The notes beneath the pieces were generated by a model. That model did not search any database. It saw nothing but the letters and a program-made list of their open reading frames with translations, and was not told where the DNA came from. A stretch of 31,378 bases of DNA from a virus. Where the stretch lies: the IMG/VR virus record IMGVR_UViG_3300042888_000215, positions 1-31,378 of that record; one strand, written 5' to 3'. This document shows positions 6,072-29,219 of this stretch, piece after piece. A program made the position numbers and the translations under genes. Position 1 is the stretch's first letter; each line of letters opens with the position of its first letter.

Positions 6072-6476
6072 ATGGCACAGCAAGGTGGTAAGCGACCAGT
6101 TCGCACTAATACTCAAGCTAAGCCAGTATCTGGACCAGGTGCTTTGTCACAGCGTACTGATATGATGACTGCAAGTGATCCCAATGTTTATGGTGATCGC
6201 AAAGCTACTGAAGAACTAATGGCTGGTGCTCAAATGGCAAAGCAACAACCAATGCCATCTGCTCCTCCTCTTACTGGATTGTTTGAACCAACCACTAGAC
6301 CAGATGAACCAGTTACTGCTGGAAATCCTTTTGGTCCTGGACCAGGTCCTGAAGCACTTGTGTTACCTGCACGTACATTTAATCCTACAGAAATTCTTAC
6401 ACGCTTGGCACAAAGTGATCCAAGTGGTGAAGTAGAAATGATACTTCGTGAACTAAACAGTAAGGGTATTGTTTAG
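6072..6476 (+). CDS. Proline-rich small protein after portal
   Basis: A 134-aa protein with a basic start, a disordered proline- and glycine-rich middle (PTTRPDEPVTAGNPFGPGPG near residues 77-96) and a helical C-terminus (NPTEILTRLAQ ... MILRELNSKGIV). I recall proteins with the same RPDEPVTAG...FGPGPGPE core just after the portal in actinobacteriophages, always of unknown function; this is memory, not a search. The C-terminal helix resembles the last residues of the portal (DVASILARL), perhaps a shared binding peptide. Its stop overlaps the next gene's GTG start (TAGTG). Confidence 0.6.
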   Translation: MAQQGGKRPVRTNTQAKPVSGPGALSQRTDMMTASDPNVYGDRKATEELMAGAQMAKQQPMPSAPPLTGLFEPTTRPDEPVTAGNPFGPGPGPEALVLPARTFNPTEILTRLAQSDPSGEVEMILRELNSKGIV

Positions 6477-9400
6477 TGACAATTCAACCAATGGGACTTC
6501 CTGAAGAACAGAGTGGTTTAACCCAAGTTGGAGACTTAACTCAGGTTTCAGGTTTAACTCAAACTCAAAGCATATTTAATAAAACTCAAAGCGATCCCTC
6601 AACTGCTGCTAAACGTACTCTAGATGCATCTGTTGCGCGTGTTTCTCCTGCTCTTTATGCTGCTGGTTCACGTGCTTCTTTAACTCGTGAAGAAAAAAAC
6701 CTTATTGAAAACTGGTCGCAGGTTCGTGAGAAGCATCAGCAATTAATGAAGATGAGCAATAAAGATGCTGCTGACTCTTTTACTAAGCTTGAACCTGGTT
6801 TTCAGGAAGCTTTAAAACAATATTACAAAATTGATTATGCTAAGAAAAATGATGGTCAAGTATTAATTCAAAACGATGATGTTCGTAAAGCTCTTGGTAT
6901 TGAAAATAGTACTGGTGATGGAAATATTAGTTATGGTGATGTAGCAAAAAGTCCATTTCAATTTTTAATGGGTGCTGCTACTCAGTATGGTAAATTTATT
7001 AATACTCCTGGCAGTATGCTGCAAAACTCTGTTGTTAATAAAGAATCTTTCTGGAGCCGTAGTAACGGTGAAGTAGCCTTTGATGGTAAGTATCTTTATG
7101 ACAATGATTTAGCTGATGAATTAGTTAACAAGTATGGTGGCGCAGAAAGCTTTGTAGCCATGCATGTACTTGCTGGTGATACTCCTGGTGAAATCATTGA
7201 CGCATGGGGTCCTAATGATCCAGCAATTCTTGCTGCAGTTAACACAATGTTTAACGAACAAGAAGCATTTAATGTAATGCTTGGTGAATTTTCAAGAGCA
7301 CAATTATCTCCTGGTCGTATTGCTGGTCGTTTTCTTAATGAAAAATTAGGAATTGATACAAACAACAACACAGCATGGTTTAGTGTTGGAACTGGTGCTA
7401 TTGACTTTGCTTACCAAATTTTTGCTGATCCATTAACCTATTTAACTCTTGGTGCTTCCGCTGTTATTAAGGGTGCAAGCAAAGCAGAAAAACTTGCTAA
7501 CATGGTTAAGTCTGGTGCCGATGTAAATATGCTTCTTGGTATTCCTGAGGTTGCAAGTTACTACGGTAGGTACACTAAGTTAATTGGTGAACTTGGTGGG
7601 GCAATGGCTATTAATGCTACTACTAGTGCAGCTAAAGCAGCTAAGGCTAGTCAAGTTGCACAAATCACAAGAAAAATTGAAATGGATCATGCTGACATTG
7701 CATCTCCAGATGATATTAAAACTTGGCTAGATTATGGTGTAACAGATCTTGATAGTTTTAAAAATCTTTTTGCAGGAGAAGGTGCAAAGGAATGGACTAG
7801 GTTAATTCGCGGTAAAACAGTAAGTACTGTTTATGCACGTGAAGGAGTTGCTTATTCTAAGCGTTCTCGTGAATCTACTATTAAAGTTAAAAAGAATTTA
7901 CGAAATATTTTTCTTGGCAAAGAAGAAGATATAGCTACTGGTACAAGTGATTATGAAAAAGTTAGAGCAGGTTTATTAGGTGACGAACCTTTAGACATTG
8001 AAATTGCAATTAATAAAAAGCAAAATACTTTTCAGCGTTTTATTGAAAGACAAACAAGACTGCATCCTGGGCGTTCTGTTGTCTATCACGATGATGCAAA
8101 TCTAGATAGAACAATAGATGTTTTTAATAAGCAGGCATTCTTAGCTCTTGGTCGTAGAGATCTTGCTGACATGGCTACTGCTGAATTTAGATACCTTCCG
8201 CAAGCTGAACGCTTTGCAATGCATCGTTCTATTTTTGAAATGATTATGCGACGTGAAGGTATTCATGGTTTAGATGGTGGTCAAGCATTTATTGACAATG
8301 CGCTTGAACTACATTTTGGTTCTAAAAATACTTGGACAACCGCAGAAGAATTAGCAATACCTTCTAGGTCTGGAATTACTAACCGACCAATGAGCATTGC
8401 CGTAACTGGACCGCTACATTCTTCTCAGTTTCAAAACTTTGTAACTGCTCCAGACTGGAGAGGTATATCAGAATTTGTTGCTTCAAAGTCTTTGAAAAAA
8501 AATAAAGACGAAAGCTTAGTTGATTACATTCCAAAATTAATTGGTGGTGCCTACAATTCTAGAGCAACTGGTATTGGTACAGATCTTTGGACAACGCTAA
8601 CTCTTATTCCTCAATTGGGTATTCGTACTGCAATTGAAGAAGGCTTTATGTTTTTTATGTATGCCAAAGCTGGCATGATTAGAAATTACAGAACCTCTAA
8701 GCAATATCAGCGTATTTGGCGAGCAGCTAAAGGTGAAGATGATAAGTCTGGTGCAGGACCTATTAAAGCTGGAGTTGAAACACTTTTAGATAAAACACTT
8801 GGTAAAACACTTGGCAGAAGTTTTGGTGTATCTAGATCAATTAGCCAAGAAACGCGAGCAAGACTCCGTAAAGATGTTTTAGAAAACAATAAGGATCTTC
8901 CAAAATGGAAGCAAGATGAACTTATTGGCGAAACCATTCTTGATGCTGCAATCTTTATGCATGGAACAAAACTAGCTCCAGCACAAACTAGATGGTTTAA
9001 AGAACTAGTAATGGAAAACCCACAAGTTCTTCATAGTATTTCACAAAAGAATGTTACAGATAGTTTGCAAGGCAAAACTGCCATACAAGAATTTGGTGAC
9101 TTGTTAAGTGATAGTCAGTTAGATATGGCTATGGACGAGCTTGGTCTTATAGCTCAAGGAGCTATTAAGTCTTTTCAAGTTTCTTCAATGAAAGATTCTC
9201 ATCGCGATATTGCAATGTTTAGAAACTTTACCCGTATCTTTAATGACAAGGGATTTGAAGCACGTAATGGAAAAGATGTAACTAGATTTAGTTTTGCTTC
9301 TGTACTTCTAAAGCACAACGCTGGATTCTCTTCAACTGACTGGGCTAATGCAAGCGATGAATTAATGCGATTAATGGGTTTTGTAAAAAATTCAGATAAT

Positions 9401-11722
9401 GCTTGGGTTGTTGGATTAGGTAAAGAAGATCAAGTTAAAAAGATTTTAGAAGGAAGTCGCTTCTTTGATCAATGGAAAGATCTAGCTAATCCTGCAGATA
9501 AGATGCAAGAATTTATTATTGCTGGTTTATCAGATACTTACGTTACTCTTCATGGTAGTTCAGAAGTTTTTAATCCTAAAATAGCTGAACTGTTTCAAGA
9601 TGTTGCAAAAGGTAAAGATCACCGAAAGATCATGGGTGACATCAGCTTTGAAGATTATGTAGAAGCTACTAAAGGATTTAAAGTTCAAGGTCATATTATG
9701 ACTGATATTAAATTTGATGGCGTAGCTACTGATTTAAGAACTGCAATTCAAAAGTATGGTCAAGATCAAGCCTTTGATTTAATGGCTCGTCAAACTGATG
9801 CTATTACTCGTCTACCTGTAACTCATATGCATTATATTGCGTTCCGAAAGCAGTATGAAGAAACAGAATTTAAGATGGCTGAAGATCTACATAGTGCTTG
9901 GTTAGCAGAAAATAAACTTGCTTCAGAATCTGCGATTAAAAGAAATAAAGAAATAGCAGAAGAGCAAGCTTCAAAGTTTTTTACTAATAAAGCAATTAAC
10001 GATGCAGCTGGACATGTATTAAAGTTCTCTGATAACCCTGCCATGCAAACTGTATTTGCTTACAACATGAGAACTGTTGGTCGTTTCTATCGTGCAGTCG
10101 AAGACTTCCATCGTCGCATGTACCGTCTTGTTAAAGATCACCCACTAGATGTAATCTATCGCTTGCGTTTAATGAATCAAGGTCTTGATGCAGTTGGAGA
10201 TGTACACACAGACGATGATGGCAACAAGTATGTTGTGCTTCCAATGGATGATGTTATCTATAGTGCGGTAGACACAACAATTCGTACATTAACAAATGAG
10301 ACTGCTTCTATTAACCAGCCATTATTTAACGATATTACTTTTAAGTTAACTGCTGGTAACCCTTCATTCCAGGATGATGCTGGTATGCCTTATCTTTCTG
10401 GACCAATGGGTTCCCTTTCCGTTGTTGCCGCTAAATCAATGCTTGGAATATTACCTTTTGATGAAACAAAGAACATTTCTGAAGATTTAGACAACTGGTT
10501 TATGGGTAGCATGGGAGATAATGCAACAATAAGCAAGTCATTAACTCCAAAGTTTGCTAGAAACATATGGTCAATGTTAAATGTTGACGAACAATCTACT
10601 CAAGAAATTTCTGCGCTAACTCAAGCAATTAGTTACAATGAAGCAAACAATATAAAGATTAATCCAGATGATCCTAAGTACAAGTACGCTGATGGAACTC
10701 TTAATGAAGCTTTGTTAAATGAAGATAAAGTTAAATATCTAAGAGATCTACGTATTGGTGCACATAACATTATTGTTACTCGTGCTTTATTGGGAATGAT
10801 TCTTCCATTCTCTGTTCAAACAAAGAACACAAAGGATGTACCTCCATACTTACTTGATAGTGGTATTACCTCTATGCAACAAAGCTTTTATGAAGTGTTA
10901 GATCAAGTAAAAGATAAGTATCCTGATGCTAACGATCATTACGAAATGGCTTTAGCTACATGGATGGGTGAAAATCCTGGTAAGGCTGCCTATCTTGTGT
11001 CTAAGAAGTCTAAAGAAATTCAACCAATTGTTAATTACTCAAATGAAATGCAAGATTGGACTATTGCAAATCAAGATGCAGTAGATCAGTACGGAGCAGG
11101 AGCTTTACTTTTTGCTCCTAAGATTGGTGAGTTCAGTCCAGGTGTTTGGCAATGGGCTTCTGCTGCTGGAATTGCAAAGAACGTAGACATTGATAGTTAC
11201 TATCAAAAAGTCTGGATGCAAGAGTATGTTAATAACTATTACGATCTAGGCGATCAAGAAGCACTAGAACTTAAAGCTATTCCGTTGCATTACACTGCAG
11301 AACGTCGTGCGTTATTAGCAAAGTACGATAAAAAGAAAGCAGAGTTAAAGCAGGGTGTTCCTGGTTTAGAGTTTTATATTCAAAACACAGACAACAACGA
11401 AGCTTACGATTTTGTAAATAACGCTTACAACTATGTTACTTCTCCTGGTGCAGATGCTCCTGAAGATATTAAACAAGATATAGCTGCTGCTTATAATCTG
11501 TACACAGATTTTATTTATAGAACAAATTATATTGATTCCTTAAATGCTGCTAATGGAACAGAACTAAAACGAGCTGAAAAAGAAAAAACAGTTAATGCAA
11601 TTAAAGAACTAATTAAATCTGATTCTACTAGAACTATTGAGCAGTATTACAACTACGGACTAAAAAAATTAATTAATGCTACAACAAGAGATGCTAAAGC
11701 TGGAATTTGGAGAAATGAATAA
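6476..11722 (+). CDS. Giant structural protein, putative internal/ejection protein
   Basis: A 1748-aa protein, the largest in the window, starting with GTG in a TAGTG overlap. The N-terminus has a short repeat (LTQV, LTQVS, LTQTQ within residues 15-32). The body is mostly helical, with hydrophobic or amphipathic stretches near residues 305-327 (AIDFAYQIFADPLTYLTLG), 700-735 (LWTTLTLIPQLGIRTAIEEG, then FMFFMYAKAG) and about 1430 (IIVTRALLGMILPFS). I see no lysozyme, RNA polymerase or tape-measure repeat. Large helical proteins with scattered membrane-active segments fit virion proteins that enter the cell with the DNA, such as T7 gp16 or N4-type internal proteins, but homology to those is not visible. 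The 434-aa gene follows in a TAATG overlap. The function is inference from size, place and composition. Confidence 0.6.
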   Translation: MTIQPMGLPEEQSGLTQVGDLTQVSGLTQTQSIFNKTQSDPSTAAKRTLDASVARVSPALYAAGSRASLTREEKNLIENWSQVREKHQQLMKMSNKDAADSFTKLEPGFQEALKQYYKIDYAKKNDGQVLIQNDDVRKALGIENSTGDGNISYGDVAKSPFQFLMGAATQYGKFINTPGSMLQNSVVNKESFWSRSNGEVAFDGKYLYDNDLADELVNKYGGAESFVAMHVLAGDTPGEIIDAWGPNDPAILAAVNTMFNEQEAFNVMLGEFSRAQLSPGRIAGRFLNEKLGIDTNNNTAWFSVGTGAIDFAYQIFADPLTYLTLGASAVIKGASKAEKLANMVKSGADVNMLLGIPEVASYYGRYTKLIGELGGAMAINATTSAAKAAKASQVAQITRKIEMDHADIASPDDIKTWLDYGVTDLDSFKNLFAGEGAKEWTRLIRGKTVSTVYAREGVAYSKRSRESTIKVKKNLRNIFLGKEEDIATGTSDYEKVRAGLLGDEPLDIEIAINKKQNTFQRFIERQTRLHPGRSVVYHDDANLDRTIDVFNKQAFLALGRRDLADMATAEFRYLPQAERFAMHRSIFEMIMRREGIHGLDGGQAFIDNALELHFGSKNTWTTAEELAIPSRSGITNRPMSIAVTGPLHSSQFQNFVTAPDWRGISEFVASKSLKKNKDESLVDYIPKLIGGAYNSRATGIGTDLWTTLTLIPQLGIRTAIEEGFMFFMYAKAGMIRNYRTSKQYQRIWRAAKGEDDKSGAGPIKAGVETLLDKTLGKTLGRSFGVSRSISQETRARLRKDVLENNKDLPKWKQDELIGETILDAAIFMHGTKLAPAQTRWFKELVMENPQVLHSISQKNVTDSLQGKTAIQEFGDLLSDSQLDMAMDELGLIAQGAIKSFQVSSMKDSHRDIAMFRNFTRIFNDKGFEARNGKDVTRFSFASVLLKHNAGFSSTDWANASDELMRLMGFVKNSDNAWVVGLGKEDQVKKILEGSRFFDQWKDLANPADKMQEFIIAGLSDTYVTLHGSSEVFNPKIAELFQDVAKGKDHRKIMGDISFEDYVEATKGFKVQGHIMTDIKFDGVATDLRTAIQKYGQDQAFDLMARQTDAITRLPVTHMHYIAFRKQYEETEFKMAEDLHSAWLAENKLASESAIKRNKEIAEEQASKFFTNKAINDAAGHVLKFSDNPAMQTVFAYNMRTVGRFYRAVEDFHRRMYRLVKDHPLDVIYRLRLMNQGLDAVGDVHTDDDGNKYVVLPMDDVIYSAVDTTIRTLTNETASINQPLFNDITFKLTAGNPSFQDDAGMPYLSGPMGSLSVVAAKSMLGILPFDETKNISEDLDNWFMGSMGDNATISKSLTPKFARNIWSMLNVDEQSTQEISALTQAISYNEANNIKINPDDPKYKYADGTLNEALLNEDKVKYLRDLRIGAHNIIVTRALLGMILPFSVQTKNTKDVPPYLLDSGITSMQQSFYEVLDQVKDKYPDANDHYEMALATWMGENPGKAAYLVSKKSKEIQPIVNYSNEMQDWTIANQDAVDQYGAGALLFAPKIGEFSPGVWQWASAAGIAKNVDIDSYYQKVWMQEYVNNYYDLGDQEALELKAIPLHYTAERRALLAKYDKKKAELKQGVPGLEFYIQNTDNNEAYDFVNNAYNYVTSPGADAPEDIKQDIAAAYNLYTDFIYRTNYIDSLNAANGTELKRAEKEKTVNAIKELIKSDSTRTIEQYYNYGLKKLINATTRDAKAGIWRNE

Positions 11723-13026
11723 TGGCTAATGAAAATGAATATGATCCATTAGAAGAAGCCAGACGCAAAGAAGCTGAAAAAAAGGCAAAGAAAGATGCTG
11801 AAGATAGGGCTCGTAAAAATTCTGGCAGAGATCAAGAAACTCAACAACAAGAGTTATCTCTTACATTTGTAAGACTAGAACAAACTCAAGCAAAAGAACA
11901 ATATGATTTGGCTGCTGAAAAATATGCTGCTTCAAATTCTTCTAAAGATAAAAAAGCTTATGAAGATGCTGAACGTAGGTACTATCAAGCAAATGCTGCA
12001 CTAAGAAGTGCTGGAGTTGACGTAGATCCAGCAACTGGAAAACAGGGAAGCACTATTCCCAAGTATACTGATCGACCTTCTAATCCAGTGGCAAGAGGTT
12101 TTGATCCTTATACAAATACTGGTGCTGCTGGTGCAGATAATCCAGCTGAACGTGCAAAGACTGCTGCAACTGGTCTAGCACCAAATTACATTACAGTTAA
12201 TCCATTAGATAACAATCGTTGGAATAATGCGTTTGAACTTATTCCAGGTACATTTGATCATTACTGGAAACAAGACGATACAATGTCAGTTCCTATTTCT
12301 TTCTTTCCTAACACTGTTGGATCAATTTACCAAAAAGAAGATGGAAGTCCAGAAACTCAAAACGAAGCAGTGACTCGTATTGTTGATGAGTATGCTAACG
12401 CTGGCAAGATGAATGAACTTCGTGATTTATTTGTAACTAGCAAAATTGCAAACAGTCCAGCCGAACAATTTCTTATGGCTCAAGCAAGCAAGGCTCCTAA
12501 TTCGGGATACAGTATAGATCAAAATACAAGAGAACTACTTGTACGAGCACTTCAATTTGGAACTCACTATAACGCAACCGCATTAAGAGCAGGTCAAAAG
12601 CCTGCAACTTTTATTGATTTCTTAAAGGCTTACAAGGGTGAGTTAAATCAAAAGTATGGTAGCGAAGGTGGCGGTGGTGGTACACCAAGACGTACCGTTA
12701 GCATTAACAAACAAGTATTTACTCCAGAAGAACTTGAATTAAATATTGATGCGTTCTTCCAAGAATACACTGGTCAAGGTGCAAGTAAAGAAGATGTTGA
12801 CTACCTTACTAGGCGGTTAAATGCTCAACCTTCACAAAAAACTGTGACTACTCGTAGCGGTAATACAACAACATCTACTACTAGTGGTGGAGTTTCCCAA
12901 CAAGAACAACAGTTGGCAATGCGAGAGATGGCTTTAGAGGATCCTGAAGCAGAGTCTTATAACAAAGCAACTACATATTTAAATTACTTCCGCGAAGCTC
13001 TAGCTTCTCCGATTCAGCTAGGTTAA
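11722..13026 (+). CDS. Putative internal virion protein (434 aa)
   Basis: The N-terminus (residues 5-90) is a highly charged helix, probably a coiled coil (EEARRKEAEKKAKKDAED). A mixed middle domain follows, then a pentaglycine linker (about residues 313-320), a helical segment (FTPEELELNIDAFFQEYTGQ) and a Ser/Thr-rich stretch (TTRSGNTTTSTTSGG). It is coupled to the giant gene upstream by TAATG, and the next ATG follows one base after its stop. The four-gene block 6476-14904 looks like one functional unit made in fixed ratio. No known domain is recognised; internal core or ejection protein is the likeliest role. Confidence 0.5.
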   Translation: MANENEYDPLEEARRKEAEKKAKKDAEDRARKNSGRDQETQQQELSLTFVRLEQTQAKEQYDLAAEKYAASNSSKDKKAYEDAERRYYQANAALRSAGVDVDPATGKQGSTIPKYTDRPSNPVARGFDPYTNTGAAGADNPAERAKTAATGLAPNYITVNPLDNNRWNNAFELIPGTFDHYWKQDDTMSVPISFFPNTVGSIYQKEDGSPETQNEAVTRIVDEYANAGKMNELRDLFVTSKIANSPAEQFLMAQASKAPNSGYSIDQNTRELLVRALQFGTHYNATALRAGQKPATFIDFLKAYKGELNQKYGSEGGGGGTPRRTVSINKQVFTPEELELNIDAFFQEYTGQGASKEDVDYLTRRLNAQPSQKTVTTRSGNTTTSTTSGGVSQQEQQLAMREMALEDPEAESYNKATTYLNYFREALASPIQLG

Positions 13027-13027
13027 T

Positions 13028-14095
13028 ATGTCATCTACTACAGTAACTACGACTAAAGGTAACAAGACTGTCTCTAAGACAACTACCAATGAGCAGCCTG
13101 GCAAAGCGTGGATTAAGAAAAAAGGTAAATGGGTTAAGCCACCTATGCCAGCAGGTAATCCAGCTGATTACGCCTGGGATAATGCTGATGGTTGGGTAAG
13201 TAAAGAAACTGCTGCAGAAGTATATGCTTATCCATTAGCTGTAATTAAATCTGATCCAGAACTTGAAGCTCTTTTTAATGAAGCATGGGCTGCACAAAAA
13301 AGTGGTCAAGAGTGGAATAAAGAAAAGTTTACTGTAAGGCTTCAAGGCACTAGATGGTACAGTTCAAAAAGTGTAAAAGAACGAGAGTACTACACTTTAG
13401 CAAATGATCCTGCTCAAGCAGCAGAATTCAGCAGGCAAGTTAATGCTAAAAAACAAAGTGTTGTTTCTTCAGCAAGAGCAAGTGGTATTAATTTATCTGA
13501 TGCTCAAATTAATACTTTAACAACTGATGCTTTGCGTCTAGGTCAAACAGACGAACAACTTGCTTCCATTCTTGTTGACTATGTTAACTATCAAACTTCA
13601 GACGTTACTCAAGCTGCTGGATCTTTGTTTGGTAAAGCAGGCGATGCAGAAGACAGCATTAGAAACTGGGCTAAGCGTAATGGTGTTACTGTTTCTGATA
13701 CTTATGTTCTTAATCAGGTACGTCAAGCTGGTAGGAATGTAGTTGATGGTGCATGGGATACCAGTACAGCACAAGATTCAATTACTAATATGGCTAAGCA
13801 ACAGTACTCTCATTGGGCTACTCAACTAGATGGTATTACATCTTTAGATGATTTAGCTCAAGGTTTTAAAAATACTATTTCTACTGAAATGGATATGGAC
13901 TTTAATAACTTAGACATGGATAACGAATTAGTTAGAAATGCAATGCTTGCTAAAGATGATAGAGATCAACCAATTAATCAGGAAGCTTTACGTAAGACAC
14001 TACGTAAGACGGATGATTGGGCAAACGTATCAAAGAATAAAGAAAAAATTTATGGTTTAGCAAATGATATTTTAACTAAGTTTGGAATGAGATAA
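13028..14095 (+). CDS. Putative internal virion protein (355 aa)
   Basis: The N-terminal 25 residues are rich in Ser/Thr (SSTTVTTTKGNKTVSKTTTN), echoing the C-terminal STT-rich stretch of the preceding protein. Then come a WIKKKGKWVKPPMP segment and a helical body with IKSDPELEALFNEAW, TRWYSSKSVKEREYYTLAND and LASILVDYVNY. I recall similar 'PEL..LF..A' plus 'T.WY' segments in unclassified actinophage and aquatic phage virion proteins (memory only). The end overlaps the next gene (TAATG). No enzyme motif is seen. Confidence 0.5.
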   Translation: MSSTTVTTTKGNKTVSKTTTNEQPGKAWIKKKGKWVKPPMPAGNPADYAWDNADGWVSKETAAEVYAYPLAVIKSDPELEALFNEAWAAQKSGQEWNKEKFTVRLQGTRWYSSKSVKEREYYTLANDPAQAAEFSRQVNAKKQSVVSSARASGINLSDAQINTLTTDALRLGQTDEQLASILVDYVNYQTSDVTQAAGSLFGKAGDAEDSIRNWAKRNGVTVSDTYVLNQVRQAGRNVVDGAWDTSTAQDSITNMAKQQYSHWATQLDGITSLDDLAQGFKNTISTEMDMDFNNLDMDNELVRNAMLAKDDRDQPINQEALRKTLRKTDDWANVSKNKEKIYGLANDILTKFGMR

Positions 14096-14904
14096 TGGCT
14101 GGTTGGGAAGATCTTAGACAAGTATTTATTGATAACGGTTTAGGTGAACTTGCTGGAATTATTGCTGAACTTGCACAAGATAATTTAGATGCTCCTACTG
14201 TTATCTATGAACGACTTAGAGAAACAGAAACTTATAAAAATAGATTTCAAGGAAATGCTCAGCGTCGCGCTGCTGGTTTAGTTCCACTTACTGAAGCTGA
14301 ATACTTAAATCAAGAGCAACAGTATGCAAGAACATTAACGGCATACTCAGCTGGTAGCCTAGCTAATAGAGAAACTTATGCAAGAATGATTGGTGGAGAC
14401 ATATCTCCAATAGAACTAAATGATAGATTTGATGTTTCATACGAAAGAGTTACTAAGGCTACTTCTGGACAGGACCAAGCTTTACTTGATGAATTAAAGA
14501 AAATGTATCCTGGAGTAACTAATAATGAATTAGCAACCAGTCTTATTCTTGGACGAGAAGGATCTAAGTTCCTTGATACCCGTCTTAATATTGCAGAAGT
14601 TAAAGCAGCAGAAACTGAAGTTGGTATTACATCCGTTCTTGGAGCTGAATCACTTTCTAACCTTAGCCGTTCTGAAGCACGTGTCGGACTATCTAAGGTT
14701 GCTGCACAAAAATCTGGCATTGAACAAGCATCTCGTGCGTTTGGTGAAGTTAGCACTGAAGGTTTGCAACGAGAACTTGAGCAGGAAAATCTTCTTGGCA
14801 TGCAGAGTAAGCGTACAAAGCGTTTAGCTTCTCAAGCTAGAGCAGAATTTACTGGAACTTCAGGCGTTAAAACTGGATCATTGGGTCGTAAGGCTCAAGT
14901 ATAA
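14095..14904 (+). CDS. Putative internal virion protein (269 aa)
   Basis: A helical protein, hydrophobic near the N-terminus (LGELAGIIAEL), with a characteristic segment around residues 42-80: YERLRETETYKNRFQGN, then RRAAGLVPLTEAEYLNQEQQ. This 'YK.RF...R..GL..L.EAEYL..E' pattern recurs, as I remember it, in virion proteins of many unclassified phages. The C-terminal third is repetitive in Ala, Glu and Ser helices and ends basic (KRTKRLASQARAEF, GRKAQV). It closes the internal-protein block; a 117-base leader with two stem-loops separates it from the scaffold gene. Confidence 0.5.
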   Translation: MAGWEDLRQVFIDNGLGELAGIIAELAQDNLDAPTVIYERLRETETYKNRFQGNAQRRAAGLVPLTEAEYLNQEQQYARTLTAYSAGSLANRETYARMIGGDISPIELNDRFDVSYERVTKATSGQDQALLDELKKMYPGVTNNELATSLILGREGSKFLDTRLNIAEVKAAETEVGITSVLGAESLSNLSRSEARVGLSKVAAQKSGIEQASRAFGEVSTEGLQRELEQENLLGMQSKRTKRLASQARAEFTGTSGVKTGSLGRKAQV

Positions 14905-14909
14905 ACTCT

Positions 14910-14980
14910 CGTTGGATCAACCAGCCCCAACGATGTAACAGACTGGTAGTGGAAGCCAAGCTATATTCCCCGTATAGCTT
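14910..14980 (+). promoter_or_regulatory. Two stem-loops in the scaffold/capsid leader
   Basis: CGTTGG (14910-14915) pairs with CCAACG (14927-14932). AAGCTATA (14958-14965) pairs perfectly with TATAGCTT (14973-14980) around TTCCCCG. Neither is followed by a U-tract. This is one of the few real gaps in the late operon (14905-15021) and sits just before the two genes needed in highest amount, so a processing or stability role for the scaffold-capsid transcript is plausible. No convincing -35/-10 pair is seen. Confidence 0.45.
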
Positions 14981-15021
14981 TGTGGTCTGCGCTCAACTAA
15001 TGAATAAGGGAGATAGTTACG

Positions 15022-15486
15022 ATGAGTAACAACAATGAATGGTACGACGAAGATGACGACTTCTCAGAAGATGATCAAACTGGTGGGTTACAAAACCTAC
15101 GTAAGGCTGATCGCGCTAAGTCTAAGCGTATCAAGGAACTAGAAGCTGAATTAGATGGTTTACGTAGCTTTCAACGTCAGTCTGTCGTCAGTTCCGTTCT
15201 AAATGAAAGAGGAGTTAATCCTAAGATCGCTACATTTATTCCATCAGATGTTGCTAATGATTCAGAATCAATTGGCAAATGGTTGGATGAGCATGGAGAG
15301 ATCTTTGGTGTTCAGCAACAAGTACAACAGCCTATGGTAGACCAAGAAAATCTATCTACACTGCGACAGATTGATGCTGTAACAGGCTCTGCTCTTTCTC
15401 CTGACGATGTTAATGACATTTTTTCACGTCTTAACAATGCTCAGAGTGCTGATGAATTAATGGAAATGATTTACGGCACAGAATAA
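15022..15486 (+). CDS. Capsid scaffolding protein
   Basis: A 154-aa protein immediately before the major capsid gene. It has a strongly acidic N-terminus (YDEDDDFSEDDQ, residues 8-19), a charged coiled-coil helix at about 27-52 (KADRAKSKRIKELEAELDGL) and a helical C-terminus (NDIFSRLNNAQSADELMEMI). Size, acidity, coiled coil and position match scaffolds that template procapsid assembly and then leave. AGGGAGA lies about 8 bases before the ATG. No protease is present, so the scaffold is probably released whole. The assignment rests on these general features, not on a conserved motif. Confidence 0.75.
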   Translation: MSNNNEWYDEDDDFSEDDQTGGLQNLRKADRAKSKRIKELEAELDGLRSFQRQSVVSSVLNERGVNPKIATFIPSDVANDSESIGKWLDEHGEIFGVQQQVQQPMVDQENLSTLRQIDAVTGSALSPDDVNDIFSRLNNAQSADELMEMIYGTE

Positions 15487-15520
15487 TCGTAATCAATCAC
15501 ACAACCCCTAAGGAATAATC

Positions 15521-16534
15521 ATGGCTGTAACAGGCTTATCGGGTGGTACCGCTGATACTAACGGCGGTCTCGGTGGTGGAGCGTACTCAGGTGCGTCCAA
15601 CACTGGAACATTCACCCCATCTAACGGTGCTGGTCTAGTTCAGAAGGCGTATGATCGCCTTGTTGAATTTGAACTACGCGCTACTCCATTGCTACGTTCA
15701 GTAGCAGACAAGAAGCCTGCTCGTCAGGCAATGCCAGGTTCGTCTATCGCTCTACAGATCTATAACGACATGGCAAAGGCTACTTCAGTTCTTTCTGAAG
15801 AAGTCGATCCAAGTGCAGTAGCACTTGGTACTCCAGATATCGTAACCATTACTCTAAACGAATATGGTAACGCTACTTTGGTTAGCAAGAAGCTTGGTCT
15901 TCTATCACTTGCTGATGTAGATCCTGCTGTTGCTAACATCATTGCATTCAACATGGCTGATAGCATTGATGATCTAGCACAGACTGCCCTACTTACAGGT
16001 ACTAATGTAATCCGTGGAACAACTGCTGCAGGTTCAACTGCTGCTGCCACTGCTAACATTACTGCAGCTCATATGCTTCGTGCTGCTGATGTTCGTAAGG
16101 CTATTGCTAAGTTGCGTAGCAACAAGGCTAATGGTCGTAAGGGATCACTATACTGGTGTGGTATTCACCCAGAAGTATCTCACGATCTTCGTGCTGAAAC
16201 TGGTGCTGCTTCATGGCGTAACCCGCATGAGTACCAGAGCAACGATGCAATCTGGGCTGGCGAAATTGGTCAGTTTGAAGGTGCATACTTTATTGAGTCT
16301 CCTCGTCTGTACACTGCTACAGATGGTGCTTCTTCAGCTAAGGTATACCGTACTTTCATTGCAGGACAGCAAGCACTTGCTGAAGCTGTAGCCGAAGAGC
16401 CACATGTGGTTATCGGTCCAGTCGTTGATCGCTTGATGCGTCAGCGTCCAATCGGTTGGTACGGTGTTCTAGGACACGCTATCTACCGTAACGAAGCTCT
16501 ATACCGTATCGAAACTGGTTCCAGTATCGCTTAG
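15521..16534 (+). CDS. Major capsid protein
   Basis: A 337-aa protein right after the scaffold, with AAGGAA before the ATG. The first 35 residues are Gly/Ser/Thr-rich and flexible. A long helix region follows (VQKAYDRLVEFELRATPLLR, about 41-60), then a segment with EEVDPSAVALGTPDIVTITL and EYGNATLVSKKLGLLSL, typical of the E-loop and P-domain of HK97-fold capsid proteins. The overall pattern is closest, from memory, to the N4-gp56-type major capsid family. The C-terminus (RLMRQRPIGWYGVLGHAIYR) is also usual in that group. Codon use is slightly richer in C-ending codons than its neighbours, as expected for a highly expressed gene. It forms the capsid shell. Confidence 0.85.
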   Translation: MAVTGLSGGTADTNGGLGGGAYSGASNTGTFTPSNGAGLVQKAYDRLVEFELRATPLLRSVADKKPARQAMPGSSIALQIYNDMAKATSVLSEEVDPSAVALGTPDIVTITLNEYGNATLVSKKLGLLSLADVDPAVANIIAFNMADSIDDLAQTALLTGTNVIRGTTAAGSTAAATANITAAHMLRAADVRKAIAKLRSNKANGRKGSLYWCGIHPEVSHDLRAETGAASWRNPHEYQSNDAIWAGEIGQFEGAYFIESPRLYTATDGASSAKVYRTFIAGQQALAEAVAEEPHVVIGPVVDRLMRQRPIGWYGVLGHAIYRNEALYRIETGSSIA

Positions 16535-16542
16535 TTTAGTAG

Positions 16543-16581
16543 CTAACTTCACTCCCACCCACAAGGTGGGGGTGTTGTTAG
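16543..16581 (+). terminator. Long stem-loop after the capsid gene
   Basis: CACTCCCACC (16550-16559) pairs with GGTGGGGGTG (16565-16574) with one G-U pair around a 5-base loop. Outside a TT/TT internal loop, CTAAC (16543-16547) pairs with GTTAG (16577-16581). The bases after the inner stem are TTGTT, a poor U-tract. It is probably a partial terminator or an mRNA 3'-end stabiliser that raises capsid expression relative to the genes downstream. Confidence 0.55.
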
Positions 16582-16598
16582 GTACTGAAAGGACTTAA

Positions 16599-16850
16599 AT
16601 GCCATACCTATTTGTACCACCAGTGGAGAACGAAGGACCTATGGGTGGTAACCACCTATTTGCTCGCTACACACGTAAGCAAGGTGTAACTGTTTACCGT
16701 CTTGATGGTGAGTTTTATGAGGATAGATTTCCAGCACAAGACGATCTTATTGACGCTGATTTAGTTTATCTTGGTGGACATGAGTATGTTGTTAATGCTA
16801 CTGAAAAAGCAGCTCTTGAATCGGTGGGCTATACGGTGATTACGACATGA
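16599..16850 (+). CDS. Small structural protein, function unknown
   Basis: An 83-aa protein after the capsid stem-loop, with AAAGGA before the ATG. It is rich in aromatic and acidic residues (MPYLFVPPVENEGPMGGN, VYRLDGEFYEDRF, DADLVYLGGHEYVV), suggesting a compact beta-rich fold. It overlaps the next gene by ATGA. Its place directly after the capsid gene suggests a head-decoration or head-completion protein, but no motif supports a specific call. Confidence 0.5.
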   Translation: MPYLFVPPVENEGPMGGNHLFARYTRKQGVTVYRLDGEFYEDRFPAQDDLIDADLVYLGGHEYVVNATEKAALESVGYTVITT

Positions 16851-17077
16851 CACTGTTAGAATCTTTATCTGTTGTATCGTTATCTCTTGGCATTATTGCT
16901 ATATTGGGTAAGTGGTTAATTGTTAATCCACTAAAAAGATTTATTAAAGATCAGACATATCCTATCCAGCCTTCGGCTAATGGTGGTCGTAGTCTTCCAG
17001 ACATTGCCCGTACGGTGGACAGGATTGAAAAGCGTTTAGATGAGCATATTACATTACATCTTAAGGATGAACTATGA
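16847..17077 (+). CDS. Small membrane protein with coiled-coil tail
   Basis: A 76-aa protein with one transmembrane segment (about residues 7-24, SVVSLSLGIIAILGKWLIVN), a basic stretch (PLKRFIKDQ) and an amphipathic C-terminal helix (IARTVDRIEKRLDEHITL) that may oligomerise. It overlaps both neighbours by ATGA. The topology resembles small phage membrane proteins often labelled holin-like, but the lysis genes lie 12 kb away, so a virion-associated or second holin-like role is only possible. Confidence 0.5.
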   Translation: MTLLESLSVVSLSLGIIAILGKWLIVNPLKRFIKDQTYPIQPSANGGRSLPDIARTVDRIEKRLDEHITLHLKDEL

Positions 17078-22105: not shown

Positions 22106-22257
22106 TGTGTGCTTCATGTGGATGTAATCACGTTAACTACAATCACGAAATGCCTTCTATGCCAGGTTCGGCTAAAGGTATCGACAAAGTAAATTACAAC
22201 ATGCCGAAGGTACCAGCAGTTCCTGCTATGCCTAAGTCAACTAAGAAGGGTAAGTAA
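22105..22257 (+). CDS. 50-aa Cys/Pro/Lys peptide
   Basis: A short gene in a TAATG overlap with the preceding stop and one base before the next ATG. The N-terminus carries three cysteines (MCASCGCNH) and then a histidine/methionine-rich run (NYNHEMPSMPG), which could bind metal. The rest has repeated MP and VPA elements (NMPKVPAVPAMP) and a basic end (STKKGK). AGGAGAAGC upstream is a good ribosome binding site. It is too short for family assignment, but the tight junctions on both sides argue that it is translated. Confidence 0.55.
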   Translation: MCASCGCNHVNYNHEMPSMPGSAKGIDKVNYNMPKVPAVPAMPKSTKKGK

Positions 22258-23030: not shown

Positions 23031-24184
23031 TGGCTAATGTAATAACACCACCAATAGATCAGTATCGTGGTACAAACATAGTTGATGGCAAAGATAATTC
23101 TATGTTATGGGAAGTTGCTGATTTTTTATTTGGTGTTGAATCAATACAGAAGATTGCTAGTGGTAAGGGTTCATGGGGCGATGCACTTAACGTAGGTGTA
23201 AGTGCTGCTACATTTTTTATTCCTCCTGCAAAGTTATTAACACTTGGAAGTAAAGCATTAAGTAAGGTTATTATTAATGCTGAGAAAGCAGCAGCTAATG
23301 AAGTTACATCTACAGTAGCAAAGAAGGTAGCTTTACGTACTGCAGAAGAAGCTAAAGCTATTCGCGATACTGGGTTACCTTTAGCTCAAACTCCTACACG
23401 ACCAATGAGTGAAGCTCGTTTTAAAAAGATTACAGAGCCAGAACCAGAGACTGGATTTGTTCCTGAGAAGCCACCATTAGATACATTTGGAAAAGATTTA
23501 ATTGAAGATGTATCACCTTACACTGCAAAAGAAACTGCTATTCGTAAGTATGCATCTAAGAAAGAAAAAGAAGAACTTTATGGATCTACTGTTGAAGTTA
23601 AGAGAGCACCTAAGAAACCATTAACTAAAGAAGAAGAAGCAATAGTTAAACAGGTTGACGAAGAAATACCAGAGGTAATCCCTAAGGCAGAAGGTCAAGG
23701 TCAAGTTCCAGTAATCAATCGCAAGACTGGTGATCTTGAATTTGAAAACAGAATGGCTGAAAGAACTGAACTTCCATCTAACATTAGTGTATCTCCACGT
23801 GTTGATCGTTCTGCTTGGTTGCAAAATCAAATGGATAAGTTATCTCGCAAAAAGAATTCTCTTCCAAAGGAAGAACGAGCAGCAGTACAAGACAAGATAG
23901 ATAAGTATGATGCTGAGTTTAAAGGTCTAATGCGAAAGATGGATCAAGATGAACGTGCTGCATCTGGCAAACTAAAAGAACAACTAGATGAACTTGATAA
24001 AGCTAAGAGTGCAAAGACAAAGCTTAAGGTTGAAAAGTTTGATCCTAAAAAAGCAAAAGAAGAACTAGCTCGTCTTCGTGAAGAGTGGACCAAGACTCCA
24101 ATTCAAGATTTTGAAAAGCGCAATCAACTTAAGCAGCAAGGTAAAAATCTTGCAGCTAAAATTAAAAAGATGGAAGGCAACTAA
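23030..24184 (+). CDS. Charged coiled-coil protein, function unknown
   Basis: The ATG at 23030 forms a TAATG junction like most others here; a second ATG two codons upstream would add only MV. The 384-aa product has an N-terminal region with a hydrophobic helix (VSAATFFIPPAKLLTLG, about residues 62-80). A long, highly charged, probably coiled and partly disordered region follows to the end (KKEKEELYGSTVEVKRAPKK, RKKNSLPKEERAAVQDKIDK, EELARLREEW). There are few aromatics and no motif. Its position before the adaptor suggests a minor virion or assembly protein, perhaps membrane-associated through the N-terminus. Confidence 0.5.
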   Translation: MANVITPPIDQYRGTNIVDGKDNSMLWEVADFLFGVESIQKIASGKGSWGDALNVGVSAATFFIPPAKLLTLGSKALSKVIINAEKAAANEVTSTVAKKVALRTAEEAKAIRDTGLPLAQTPTRPMSEARFKKITEPEPETGFVPEKPPLDTFGKDLIEDVSPYTAKETAIRKYASKKEKEELYGSTVEVKRAPKKPLTKEEEAIVKQVDEEIPEVIPKAEGQGQVPVINRKTGDLEFENRMAERTELPSNISVSPRVDRSAWLQNQMDKLSRKKNSLPKEERAAVQDKIDKYDAEFKGLMRKMDQDERAASGKLKEQLDELDKAKSAKTKLKVEKFDPKKAKEELARLREEWTKTPIQDFEKRNQLKQQGKNLAAKIKKMEGN

Positions 24185-25083
24185 TGGCTACGTTTGGTCA
24201 AATGACTGATGAGGTATCAAGAAAATTAGCAGGCTTTACGCTGCGTCAAGATCGTCAGACGCACCTTACTGTTGCCGTTAATGCAACAGCAACTAGCATT
24301 ACTGTTGCTTCTGCTACTAACATTTCTACTGGTATTATTCAGATTGATGATGAACTAATCTATGTAGATTCATATGACCGCAATACTGGTGTACTTAGTA
24401 TTCCTCCTTATGGTCGTGGTTACAATGGCACATCTGCTGCTACTCACCAGAATGGTGCGCGTGTAATTGTATCTCCTACCTTCCCGTCTGTAGACATTAA
24501 GGAAGCTATTAACGATAGTATTCAGGCAGTGTTCCCAGATTTATATTCTACTGGTACTCATACATTCTCTTACTCAACTGCTAAGTCAACCTATCCACTA
24601 CCTGATGAAGTAGAAACTGTACTTGGAGTATCGTTTCAAACTACTGGTCCATCTAAAGAATGGCTTCCTATTCGTGGCTGGCGTGTTGATCCTATGGCTA
24701 ACACTACTGCTTTTAATTCTCGCAATAGCATTAGCCTTTACTCTGGTGTTGAGCCAGGAAGAACTGTACAAATATTTTATACATCTGCTCCAGCAATAAT
24801 GGATACTGATGATGATGATTTTGAAATTGTTACTGGTTTACCTACGTCTTGTAAAGATGTAATTGTTCTTGGTGCTTCAGCACGATTATCTTCATTCGTA
24901 GATCCTGGTCGCTTAACTTTTGGTTCTGCTGAGTCTGATCAACAGTCACAGATTGCTGGTCGTGCTTATGGTGCTGGTACTAACACATCTAAGTACTTAC
25001 TTGCATTATATGAAAAGAGACTTGCTGAAGAAAGTCGAAAGTTAACAGATCGCAACCCAACTAGAATCCACTTCACAAGATAG
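24184..25083 (+). CDS. Putative head-tail adaptor protein
   Basis: A 299-aa protein. The N-terminal helix (MATFGQMTDEVSRKLAG) and the C-terminal helices (SCKDVIVLGASARLSSFVDP, YLLALYEKRLAEESRKLTDR) frame the molecule as in ring-forming connector proteins under the portal. Residues about 25-98 form an inserted beta domain (IIQIDDELIYVDSYD, GRGYNGTSAATHQNGARVIV). This domain type, with a conserved 'DDE-x-x-x-V' strand and 'RG-x-x-GT-x-A-x-H-x-x-GA-x-V', is common in phage structural proteins. It is coupled to the preceding gene (TAATG) and followed by tail genes. The adaptor call rests on architecture and place, not on a signature motif. Confidence 0.55.
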   Translation: MATFGQMTDEVSRKLAGFTLRQDRQTHLTVAVNATATSITVASATNISTGIIQIDDELIYVDSYDRNTGVLSIPPYGRGYNGTSAATHQNGARVIVSPTFPSVDIKEAINDSIQAVFPDLYSTGTHTFSYSTAKSTYPLPDEVETVLGVSFQTTGPSKEWLPIRGWRVDPMANTTAFNSRNSISLYSGVEPGRTVQIFYTSAPAIMDTDDDDFEIVTGLPTSCKDVIVLGASARLSSFVDPGRLTFGSAESDQQSQIAGRAYGAGTNTSKYLLALYEKRLAEESRKLTDRNPTRIHFTR

Positions 25084-26996: not shown

Positions 26997-29219
26997 ATGA
27001 CAACACCATATGATATCTCAGAAGATTTACCTTACGATATTTCTGCTGTAAGTACTGAAACTATATTTGAATTAACTGATATAGCTTACGATATTGTTAT
27101 TGATGATCTTCCATTTATTGTTAGTGTTAACAATCAGAACCCATACCGTCGTGAAACTGCACCGTATAAGAAGGATCAGTTTGATAATAGCCCAGAACCA
27201 GGTGAACAGTCACTTACTGGCTGGTGGTTACGATCACAAACATCATGGCACAATGGTGCTGGTATAGCATACTACGAACCAGGTACTGACTATCAACACG
27301 TAAGCCATAGGTTTGCAGATAGTCGTGGTATTGACGTATGGAATATTGGTGAAGCAACATTACTTCCAGAGATTGTTGATATCTATACTGGTAGTAATCT
27401 TATTAATGCTGCTACTGGTAATGATGGAACTGACGTTTTAGTTTTTGGTGATTCATCTGGCGGACTAAACAAGCTTGCTTTAAATGAAGACAATGAGATA
27501 ACTCCAACTCCATTTACTATTGCTAGTCATTCATCATTTCCATTTAGATCAGTAACAACTGATGGTTCTAAGTATTATGCTGCTTGTACTACATGTATTC
27601 ATACTGGTTTATTAAGTGCTAACTCTGATGTTGTTTCCTATAAGTTTTCTACTACTGCTACTAATGATGTATTTATAAAGTATGTAAAGGGATACGTTAT
27701 TCTTGGAAGCAAAAATGTTTTAACAAACTTGCACAACATTGATTCAGCAACTACTAATCATAGTGCTGGTAGTGCAAACATTCCAACAGTTGTAGCTGGT
27801 TACGGCAAGGTGCATTTAAATACTAATTGGAAATGGAATGATGCAGTAGCTTCACCTAGTGCTATTTATGTATCAGGTAATGGTGGTAATAACGGTGAAG
27901 TATGGCAAATTCTTTTTGATGAAGCGGCAAATTCTATTGATCTGCCTGGTGCTAGCATGGTTCTTAGTCTCCCAGATGGTGAACTTGTAAATGCACTAAC
28001 GTATTATCTTGGCTACTTAGTTCTTGGAACAAGTAGTGGTGTACGCATATGTCAAGTAGGTACTAATAATCAAGTTGTTCTTGGTCCTTTACTTTATGAG
28101 AACAGTGAGTATCCAGTAAACGGATTTACTCAACACGGTAGCTACATCTACGCAGCAACTAAAGTTGATAATGAAGCTGGTACATTTACTCACGCCTGCT
28201 TAGTTCGCATTGATTTATCTCAGCAATTTGATGATGGTACTTTTGCTTGGGCTTATGATCTTGAGTATCGTAGTTCTGTTAATGAATCTTATTCAGTTAA
28301 GACTAAAGCATTAACAAGTAATGTTGCTACATTAACTACACTTTTTCCACATGACTTTAGTGTTGGTAATACTATAATAATTGATGGAGTAGACGCTACG
28401 TTTAATGGTACATATACAGTTACTGCTAAAACATCTGACACTGTTTCTTATGCTAAGACTGCTTCTAATGTTACCTCGATAGATATATCACCATATGGTT
28501 CTGTAGTTGAAGCTTCAAGTAATAGTGAAGCAACAGAAGTATATGATCTTAATGATCGTAAAATTATGGTAGTTGAAGAAGAGAATGGTGCAGTAGATTC
28601 TGGTGAGCTACATGTTCAAAGCGAAACACGCAAACGAAATACTGGTTGGTTTACAACAGGTAAGATTCGTTATGGAACTATTGAACCAAAGTTTTTTAGA
28701 TACATAAATGTTCAGTGTAAGACTGGTCAAGGCGACAGTATCTCGGTATCAACTATTGATAAGAGTGGTCAAGAGAATTCTATTGCTAACCTATCTGAAG
28801 GTTTAAGTAATCAAGATATCTTTATTTCTATTCCATCTTCTAAGCAAGAGTACATGTCATTTAAGTTTGTATTTAATAACTCTACTGATGATCAACAGTT
28901 ACCAGTACTAGAAGCTTATCAAATCAAAGCTACTCCAGCTACTCGTCGCCAGCGTTTGTATCAGTATCCGCTGTCTTGTTACAACCACGAGATGGATAAG
29001 TTTAATTCTGTATTTGGTTACGATGGTCGCGCTATAGAAAACATACAGCGTCTTGAATCTATTGAAGAAACAGGTAAGTTTGTTAGCGTAACTGACTACC
29101 GCACGAACGAACAATACACAGGTGTAATTGAAGAAGTTAGATTTACAAATGAATCTTCTCCAGATAAAGACAGCAGCGGCTTTGGTGGCATGTTGCTAAT
29201 AACAATAAGGAAAATGTAA
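26997..29219 (+). CDS. Putative tail nozzle / beta-propeller structural protein
   Basis: A 740-aa protein, the second largest here. The N-terminus repeats YDIS (PYDISEDLPYDISAV). Then come WWLRSQTSWHNGAG and a propeller-like region with repeated 'LVFGDSSGGLNKL', 'VILGSKNVLTNLH' and 'LVLGTSSGVRICQVG' strands, consistent with blades. A beta domain near residues 440-500 (FSVGNTIIIDGVDATFNGTY) and a C-terminal beta region end the protein. Size, position after the adaptor and propeller-like content fit a short-tail nozzle such as T7 gp12 or P22 gp10 equivalents, but no sequence signature proves it. A peripheral tail protein is the alternative. The next gene overlaps in TAATG. Confidence 0.55.
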   Translation: MTTPYDISEDLPYDISAVSTETIFELTDIAYDIVIDDLPFIVSVNNQNPYRRETAPYKKDQFDNSPEPGEQSLTGWWLRSQTSWHNGAGIAYYEPGTDYQHVSHRFADSRGIDVWNIGEATLLPEIVDIYTGSNLINAATGNDGTDVLVFGDSSGGLNKLALNEDNEITPTPFTIASHSSFPFRSVTTDGSKYYAACTTCIHTGLLSANSDVVSYKFSTTATNDVFIKYVKGYVILGSKNVLTNLHNIDSATTNHSAGSANIPTVVAGYGKVHLNTNWKWNDAVASPSAIYVSGNGGNNGEVWQILFDEAANSIDLPGASMVLSLPDGELVNALTYYLGYLVLGTSSGVRICQVGTNNQVVLGPLLYENSEYPVNGFTQHGSYIYAATKVDNEAGTFTHACLVRIDLSQQFDDGTFAWAYDLEYRSSVNESYSVKTKALTSNVATLTTLFPHDFSVGNTIIIDGVDATFNGTYTVTAKTSDTVSYAKTASNVTSIDISPYGSVVEASSNSEATEVYDLNDRKIMVVEEENGAVDSGELHVQSETRKRNTGWFTTGKIRYGTIEPKFFRYINVQCKTGQGDSISVSTIDKSGQENSIANLSEGLSNQDIFISIPSSKQEYMSFKFVFNNSTDDQQLPVLEAYQIKATPATRRQRLYQYPLSCYNHEMDKFNSVFGYDGRAIENIQRLESIEETGKFVSVTDYRTNEQYTGVIEEVRFTNESSPDKDSSGFGGMLLITIRKM

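What the first reader, a model, noticed from the sequence alone, without database searches (positions are those of the whole stretch)
6476..14904. 8.4-kb block of four coupled unknown proteins between portal and scaffold
The 1748-, 434-, 355- and 269-aa proteins are tightly coupled, mostly helical, lack known enzyme motifs, and the largest has scattered membrane-active segments. In T7-like phages the internal core genes follow the tail genes; here the block precedes scaffold and capsid. This could be an undescribed ejection apparatus or inner core that replaces the tape-measure/tail strategy.
Basis: inference. Interest (0 to 1): 0.75.

Follow-up and report, generated by a model that had tools for sequence, protein, structure and literature searches.

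The report
Actinophage podovirus DNA-ejection protein cassette
The four unknown proteins are very probably the internal "ejection" proteins that a short-tailed phage of Actinobacteria fires ahead of its DNA; they form a cysteine-free gene cassette, with no detectable sequence relation to the T7 or N4 ejection proteins, that close relatives swap as a block.

Summary
In detail: four coupled ORFs (1748, 434, 355, 269 aa) lie between portal and a scaffold-like gene. The same order (portal – 134-aa – giant – [434] – 355 – 269 – scaffold-like – capsid) recurs in about 140 metagenomic loci, in Streptomyces podoviruses (Beephvirinae), in the isolated Planktophila phages E7 and F5, and in a Herbidospora genome. 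Evidence for ejection proteins: (i) relatives of the 355-aa protein carry NlpC/P60 or SLT peptidoglycan-hydrolase domains, or sit beside a separate NlpC/P60 gene; (ii) the block is essentially cysteine-free (4 Cys in 216,648 aa, two of them NlpC/P60 active-site cysteines; about 626 expected), as are T7, P22, N4 and P-SSP7 ejection proteins; (iii) relatives are podoviruses by published TEM; (iv) between E7 and F5 exactly this block is replaced inside ~96–97% identical genomes, the "8-kb island" reported as lacking homologues. All 26 near-complete relatives tested encode WhiB, so hosts are Actinobacteria. No sequence match to T7 or N4 ejection proteins and no PDB fold match was found. "Membrane-active segments" are not supported. 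Virion proteomics and imaging remain untested. New variant of a known kind.

The parts
6072..6476 (+). 134-aa Pro/Gly-rich, cysteine-free protein (phrog_8200); first gene of the cassette, possibly a linker or chaperone
   Evidence: 120 complete ORFs of this family among the loci, in the same place; 0 Cys in 9,190 non-redundant aa. The E7/F5 replacement begins inside this gene
6476..11722 (+). 1748-aa giant ejection-protein candidate, mostly helical, no known fold
   Evidence: Homologues of 1514-1925 aa in the same place. Near and divergent giants homologous by profile-profile comparison, 100% probability, E 5.6e-59 over 1264 columns. AF2 pLDDT 68 for residues 556-1748, no PDB match
11722..13026 (+). 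434-aa accessory ejection-protein candidate, present in part of the family (196-452 aa)
   Evidence: Matches Manuel gp11 (phmmer 2.5e-8); cysteine-free in 41 non-redundant members
13028..14095 (+). 355-aa ejection-protein candidate whose relatives carry NlpC/P60 or SLT peptidoglycan-hydrolase domains; that domain is absent here
   Evidence: Match to the C-terminal parts of Manuel gp12 and gp13; PF00877 in gp12, SLT in L135, separate NlpC/P60 gene in Herbidospora. AF2 pLDDT 91, pTM 0.79, no PDB match
14095..14904 (+). 269-aa ejection-protein candidate, the most consistently conserved member of the cassette
   Evidence: phrog_8424 2.4e-39; found in 149 complete ORFs, 0 Cys in 34,335 non-redundant aa
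4073..5824 (+). Portal protein (upstream boundary of the cassette)
   Evidence: phrog_104 4.4e-23; 44% identity to Manuel portal
15022..15486 (+). Putative scaffold (downstream boundary of the cassette)
   Evidence: Directly before the capsid gene; acidic family (-7.9 net charge per 100 aa); phrog_7813 of unknown function
15521..16534 (+). Major capsid protein
   Evidence: phrog_1357 3.5e-79; 54% identity to Manuel MCP
24184..25083 (+). Short-tail adaptor (SU10-adaptor type by homologue)
   Evidence: 37% identity to Manuel gp56, which scores over the cut-off of PF24175 SU10_adaptor
26997..29219 (+). Probable tail nozzle (by position and size; no fold evidence)
   Evidence: Homologous to Manuel gp54, E 2.5e-40; phrog_11667 unknown; no PDB sequence match

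Best explanation
ORFs 6476-14904, with the 134-aa ORF at 6072-6476, encode the internal ejection proteins of a short-tailed actinobacteriophage. Inferred working: the proteins are assembled during head formation, probably on the portal. On adsorption they are threaded out through the portal, adaptor and nozzle before the DNA. They refold outside into a conduit that crosses the thick peptidoglycan and the single membrane of the actinobacterial host. The 355-type protein is the arm that carries a wall-cutting domain in some relatives (NlpC/P60 or SLT); in this phage that domain is missing and wall cutting must come from elsewhere or be unnecessary. The giant, 355 and 269 proteins are exchanged largely as one cassette, which suggests they contact one another and that the cassette is under selection to diversify, for example by host factors or superinfection exclusion. 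Shown: gene order and conservation, hydrolase fusions, cysteine absence, cassette replacement, actinobacterial hosts of relatives. Inferred: presence in the virion, ejection, conduit formation, membrane contact.
For: (1) Conserved order portal-134-giant-[434]-355-269-scaffold-like-MCP in about 140 loci, Beephvirinae, Planktophila phages E7 and F5 and a Herbidospora genome. (2) Peptidoglycan-hydrolase modules on or beside the 355 family: NlpC/P60 in Manuel gp12, SLT_3 and SLT over cut-off in L135, a separate NlpC/P60 gene overlapping the 355 gene in Herbidospora. T7 gp16 carries its hydrolase in the same N-terminal way (PMC8954989). (3) Cysteine: 4 in 216,648 non-redundant block residues against 95 in 32,854 of portal, TerL, MCP, adaptor, fibre and nozzle proteins, about 626 expected; two of the four are NlpC/P60 nucleophiles. 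Known ejection proteins match: T7 1/2261, P22 0/1309, N4 0/4294, P-SSP7 gp14-16 1/2282. Lack of Cys in N4 vRNAP was linked to entry (PMC2784036). (4) Relatives are podoviruses by TEM (PMC9753666). (5) E7 and F5 are 96.4% identical up to position 8372 and 97.5% from 16922, with no alignment between; both versions are remote homologues. P22-like ejection genes likewise work as an exchangeable set and are targets of SieA exclusion (PMC10883804). (6) WhiB in 26 of 26 near-complete relatives.
Against: No virion proteomics or imaging was found for any member. No detectable homology to T7 gp15/gp16 or N4 vRNAP and no PDB fold match, though the giant model is of low confidence. No transmembrane segments, whereas T7 gp14-like proteins have them (PMC8954989). 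Hydrolase domains were recognised in only a few relatives (2 of 58 scanned by Pfam) and not in this phage. Cysteine absence is not exclusive: scaffolds, some capsid proteins, P22 gp26 and lambda tape measure are also Cys-free.
Confidence: 0.82

Rival explanations
1. The proteins are tape-measure and tail proteins of a long-tailed phage; the giant sets tail length and carries wall hydrolases, as the 'minor tail protein' labels in Beephvirinae suggest.
For: Tape measures are long, helical and can carry NlpC/P60 or SLT domains; lambda gpH is also Cys-free. Nonsignificant BFVD hits include tape measures. Some relatives are annotated 'minor tail protein'.
Against: Cluster BF phages with the same module are podoviruses by TEM. 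No major tail protein of a long-tail set, tail terminator or tape-measure chaperone was recognised in the window. A SU10-type adaptor homologue is present. The genes lie before scaffold and capsid.
Confidence: 0.05
2. The proteins are internal head proteins for assembly or DNA organisation that stay in the capsid (core or scaffold-like) and are not ejected.
For: Location next to the scaffold-like and capsid genes; scaffolds are also Cys-free.
Against: Peptidoglycan hydrolase domains on the 355 family make sense only outside the head. Whole-block exchange with unchanged capsid and portal argues against tight fit to the shell.
Confidence: 0.07
3. The giant is an injected enzyme or effector (for example a virion RNA polymerase as in N4 or crAss-like phages) rather than part of a conduit.
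For: Giant, Cys-free, ejected-looking, like the N4 vRNAP; one well-predicted mixed alpha/beta region at about residues 885-1080.
Against: No RNA-polymerase or other enzyme family in Pfam or PHROGs; no hhalign match to N4 vRNAP; no PDB fold match; conserved positions are scattered, mostly Gly, Pro, Asp and Arg, without an evident catalytic cluster.
Confidence: 0.06

Closest known systems
Beephvirinae Streptomyces podoviruses (Manuel gp8, gp10-gp14; cluster BF)
   Same: Same gene order, homologous portal, capsid, adaptor and cassette proteins; podovirus morphology by TEM
   Different: Beephvirinae have two 355-type paralogues (gp12 with NlpC/P60, gp13 with a different N-terminus annotated 'glycosylase'), tRNA genes between cassette and scaffold, and no assigned ejection role
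Planktophila phages LanE43AprE7 and LanE43AprF5 (OX376640, OX376641; PMC10202952)
   Same: Same module; giant 25% identical to the window's (E7); actinobacterial host; cassette equals the published 8-kb island
   Different: The paper describes the island as hypothetical proteins without homologues; E7 and F5 have no separate 434-type gene recognised
T7 gp14-gp15-gp16 internal core / DNA ejectosome
   Same: Multi-gene set of long, nearly Cys-free proteins, one carrying a peptidoglycan hydrolase; rapid divergence
   Different: Genes follow the tail genes; Gram-negative host; T7 gp14 has TM helices; no detectable homology of the block to gp15 or gp16
P22 gp7-gp20-gp16 ejection proteins
   Same: Cys-free; function and are exchanged as a set; variation tied to superinfection exclusion
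   Different: Small proteins, genes placed after the tail needle gene; Gram-negative host; sequence homology to the block was not tested
N4 vRNAP (gp50) with gp51 and gp52
   Same: Giant Cys-free ejected protein with two smaller partners
   Different: gp50 is an RNA polymerase; the window giant shows no polymerase family and no profile match

Membership tests
Podophage ejection proteins (functional class) | Encoded in the structural module of a short-tailed phage | tested here: met
   Synteny with podoviruses confirmed by published TEM
Podophage ejection proteins (functional class) | Present inside the mature virion | not testable with these tools
   No virion proteomics or structure found for any member
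Podophage ejection proteins (functional class) | Ejected into the host envelope before DNA and required for infection | not testable with these tools
   Needs infection experiments
Podophage ejection proteins (functional class) | One member carries, or in some relatives carries, a peptidoglycan hydrolase domain | tested here: met
   NlpC/P60 and SLT on relatives of the 355-aa protein; absent in the window itself
Podophage ejection proteins (functional class) | Cysteine depletion seen in T7, P22, N4 and P-SSP7 ejection proteins | tested here: met
   4 Cys in 216,648 aa
T7-type core proteins (homology) | Sequence or profile similarity to T7 gp15 or gp16 | tested here: not met
   hhalign probabilities below 1%
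T7-type core proteins (homology) | gp14-like small protein with predicted TM helices | tested here: not met
   No hydropathy peaks above 1.6 in the four window proteins or in the 134-aa family
N4-type virion RNA polymerase | RNA polymerase domain | tested here: not met
   No Pfam or PHROG polymerase hit; no hhalign match
Siphophage tape-measure proteins | Long tail with major tail protein and tape-measure gene order | tested here: not met
   No tail-tube gene order recognised; podovirus relatives
Beephvirinae / Planktophila-phage cassette (phrog_8200, phrog_10618, phrog_6654, phrog_8424) | Homologous genes in the same order between portal and scaffold-like gene | tested here: met
   phrog_8200, phrog_6654 and phrog_8424 hits to window proteins; giant matches Manuel gp10 and E7 giant; phrog_10618 hits 13 of 27 giants, not the window giant itself

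The most novel reading that the evidence does not exclude
Actinobacterial podoviruses carry an independently evolved ejection apparatus, built from new folds around a 1.5-1.9 thousand residue giant, for crossing thick peptidoglycan and a single membrane. It is not homologous to the T7, P22 or N4 systems and diversifies by replacement of the whole cassette between near-identical phages that infect the same host strain.
Probability: 0.4. Interest if true: 0.75.

Novelty: new variant of a known kind. Interest (0 to 1): 0.63.

Why it matters
A 2022 review describes ejection-protein genes as a feature of podophages of Gram-negative hosts and absent from phi29-like phages of Gram-positives (PMC8954989). 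This lineage has what looks like a full ejection cassette and infects Actinobacteria, including the very abundant freshwater Nanopelagicales, so the idea that such proteins exist to cross a periplasm becomes directly testable. It turns a reported 'hypothetical 8-kb island' into an entry apparatus exchanged as a unit, pointing to selection at the DNA-entry step. The cysteine-free signature, shared by unrelated ejected proteins, may help to recognise ejection proteins in unannotated phage genomes, within the caveat that scaffolds and tape measures share it.

Tried and rejected
Membrane segments in the giant: rejected by hydropathy against shuffles. Homology to T7 gp15, T7 gp16 or N4 vRNAP: none by hhalign. 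Similarity of the 355 and 269 families to one another: none. PDB sequence search with giant, 355, nozzle, adaptor, portal and capsid: nothing meaningful. PDB fold search of giant 556-1748 and of the 355-aa protein: best probability 0.09 and 0.06. BFVD fold search found only uncharacterised phage proteins, presumably homologues, as significant hits. Lsr2 DNA-binding hit in the 355-aa protein: below the curated cut-off, treated as chance. Manuel gp13 N-terminus as a glycosylase: not confirmed by Pfam or PDB sequence search. WhiB in the window: not found, but the contig is about 31 kb where relatives are 34-43 kb. A clean genome-wide correlation test of cassette co-inheritance was only suggestive: truncated capsid genes inflate some pairs, and in several pairs the giant differs more than the 269 protein, so exchange is not always of the whole block. 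An attempted alignment with wrong coordinates failed.
Full report
WHAT IS THERE. The four ORFs exist at the stated coordinates, back to back with 1-bp overlaps or a 1-nt gap. Portal (phrog_104) precedes and major capsid protein (phrog_1357) follows; the 154-aa gene before the capsid is scaffold by position and acidity only. The window giant has no Pfam or PDB match, only insignificant PHROG matches, and one BLAST relative among 50,697 phage records, but the 355- and 269-aa proteins fall in phrog_6654 and phrog_8424, families of unknown function.

THE LINEAGE. The 355-aa protein led to 29 records of Streptomyces phages. Manuel (NC_048685, Beephvirinae) has the same module: TerL 43%, portal 44%, capsid 54% identity, with giant gp10, gp11, gp12/gp13 and gp14 matching the 1748-, 434-, 355- and 269-aa proteins. 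Scans of viral contigs with the 269-aa alignment and the capsid protein returned 160 loci. After profile building, 142 loci show the order portal – 134 – giant – [434] – 355 – 269 – scaffold-like – MCP or the part of it that the contig covers. A Herbidospora cretacea genome contig carries the same series. All 26 near-complete relatives tested (34-43 kb) encode WhiB, a regulator found only in Actinobacteria and their phages (PMC8612146). The window itself has no WhiB but is shorter; its 87%-identical relative L005 has one.

A LINK TO PUBLISHED ISOLATES. The single phage record that matched the giant, OX376640 (39,112 bp, titled LanE43-AprE7), fits Planktophila phage E7 (39.1 kb), isolated on a freshwater 'Ca. 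Nanopelagicales' strain (PMC10202952). [quoted passage not shown] Here E7 and F5 align at 96.4% identity up to E7 position 8372, inside the 134-aa-type gene. Nothing aligns from 8373 to 16921, and 97.5% identity resumes at 16922, at the end of the 269-type gene. The island is therefore this cassette. The two versions are remote homologues: the F5 proteins match the 355 (4.9e-14) and 269 (4.2e-43) profiles. The F5 giant matches the divergent-giant profile (9e-77), and the two giant groups are homologous at 100% probability, E 5.6e-59 over 1264 columns with 12% identity. In metagenomic pairs with near-identical capsid proteins the giants are often unalignable by BLAST (80 of 320 pairs); truncated capsids inflate that number, and exchange is not always of the whole block.

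WHY EJECTION PROTEINS. First, wall-cutting domains: the 355-type domain is fused to NlpC/P60 in Manuel gp12 (2.6e-29) and to SLT_3/SLT in metagenomic locus L135 (47 and 27 bits, over both cut-offs). In Herbidospora a separate NlpC/P60 gene overlaps the start of the 355-type gene. A removable peptidoglycan hydrolase on an internal protein is the pattern of T7 gp16, where the domain is likewise missing in P22-like phages (PMC8954989). Second, cysteine: non-redundant members of the cassette hold 4 Cys in 216,648 residues against 2.9 per 1000 in other virion proteins and TerL of the same loci. About 626 would be expected. Two of the four are the NlpC/P60 nucleophile in Manuel and Stella gp12; two lie in a single doubtful N-terminus. 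Tryptophan is not depleted (about 11 per 1000 in the giants). Controls from other phage groups agree: T7 gp14-16 1 in 2261, P22 gp7/20/16 0 in 1309, N4 gp50-52 0 in 4294, P-SSP7 gp14-16 1 in 2282, against about 6-8 per 1000 elsewhere in T7, P22 and N4. crAss001 cargo proteins are low but not free of Cys. The lack of Cys in N4-type polymerases was earlier linked to entry into the cell (PMC2784036). The signature is not exclusive: scaffolds, some capsid proteins, P22 gp26 and lambda gpH share it. Third, morphology: cluster BF phages are podoviruses with 50-61 nm capsids (PMC9753666), and an SU10-type adaptor homologue is present. Fourth, exchange as a set: P22 hybrids carrying whole foreign sets of gp7/20/16 work, single foreign gp16 or gp20 do not, and SieA exclusion acts on gp16 and gp20 (PMC10883804). 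The E7/F5 replacement fits that pattern.

STRUCTURE. The giant (residues 556-1748) is predicted overwhelmingly helical with one better-predicted mixed alpha/beta region near residues 885-1080 (pLDDT 68, pTM 0.42); it has no PDB match, so this says little beyond helicity. The 355-aa protein is predicted with confidence (pLDDT 91, pTM 0.79) as N-terminal beta hairpins plus a helical body; Foldseek finds nothing in the PDB (best probability 0.06), so the fold looks new at that sensitivity. There is no sign of transmembrane segments; hydrophobic stretches are rarer than in shuffled sequences.

MECHANISM. Most likely the proteins lie inside the head, leave through portal, adaptor and nozzle before the DNA, and refold into a conduit across peptidoglycan and the single membrane. 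The 355-type protein carries or recruits a wall-cutting domain where one exists. Location, ejection and conduit are inferred; no experiment on any member was found. In this phage no wall-cutting domain was found in the block. The M23 peptidase at 29431 could serve but is equally an endolysin candidate.

MEMBERSHIP. It is a member of the Beephvirinae/Planktophila-phage cassette (tested, met). It works like podophage ejection proteins (several features met, the two decisive ones untestable here). It is not shown to be homologous to T7 gp15/gp16 or N4 vRNAP (tested, not met); P22 proteins were compared only for cysteine content and exchange behaviour.

VERDICT. Observation confirmed; interpretation partly supported and improved. 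New variant of a known kind. Confidence that these are ejected internal virion proteins is 0.82.

Noticed in passing
window 21641-23030 (ORFs of 154, 154 and 88 aa): Three small, very basic, cysteine-free proteins between the fibre genes and the adaptor; the 88-aa one is strongly conserved in Planktophila phage E7 (84 aa). Candidates for DNA-binding or packaged proteins.
   Followed up: no
window 23024-24184 (386 aa): Lys-rich, cysteine-free protein of unknown family directly upstream of the adaptor, with a mildly hydrophobic N-terminal stretch; could be a further internal or tail protein.
   Followed up: no
window 29431-29832 (133 aa): Peptidase_M23 protein (2.5e-25); endolysin or virion wall enzyme.
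   Followed up: partly
window 17403-19310 (635 aa): Tail fibre with collagen-like repeats, phage collar domain and Gp10_C domain; probably corresponds to the second variable island (tail fibre and collagen-like proteins) described for E7 and F5.
   Followed up: partly
L093 and L054: The giant is split into two ORFs (913+740 and 831+740 aa); a natural gene split or a sequencing frameshift.
   Followed up: no
L004:15339-16931: The E7 homologue of the 269-aa protein contains a long Gly-Thr dipeptide repeat linker, a simple-sequence tract inside a structural gene.
   Followed up: no
lambda gpH (L170:10542-13103) and crAss001 cargo proteins (L171): Cysteine is absent from the lambda tape measure and scarce in crAss001 cargo proteins, suggesting depletion may be general for proteins that pass through a phage tail.
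   Followed up: partly
L174 (Herbidospora cretacea NZ_BBXG01000002.1): An actinobacterial genome contig carries the whole early structural module, possibly a prophage; integration genes and ends were not examined.
   Followed up: partly
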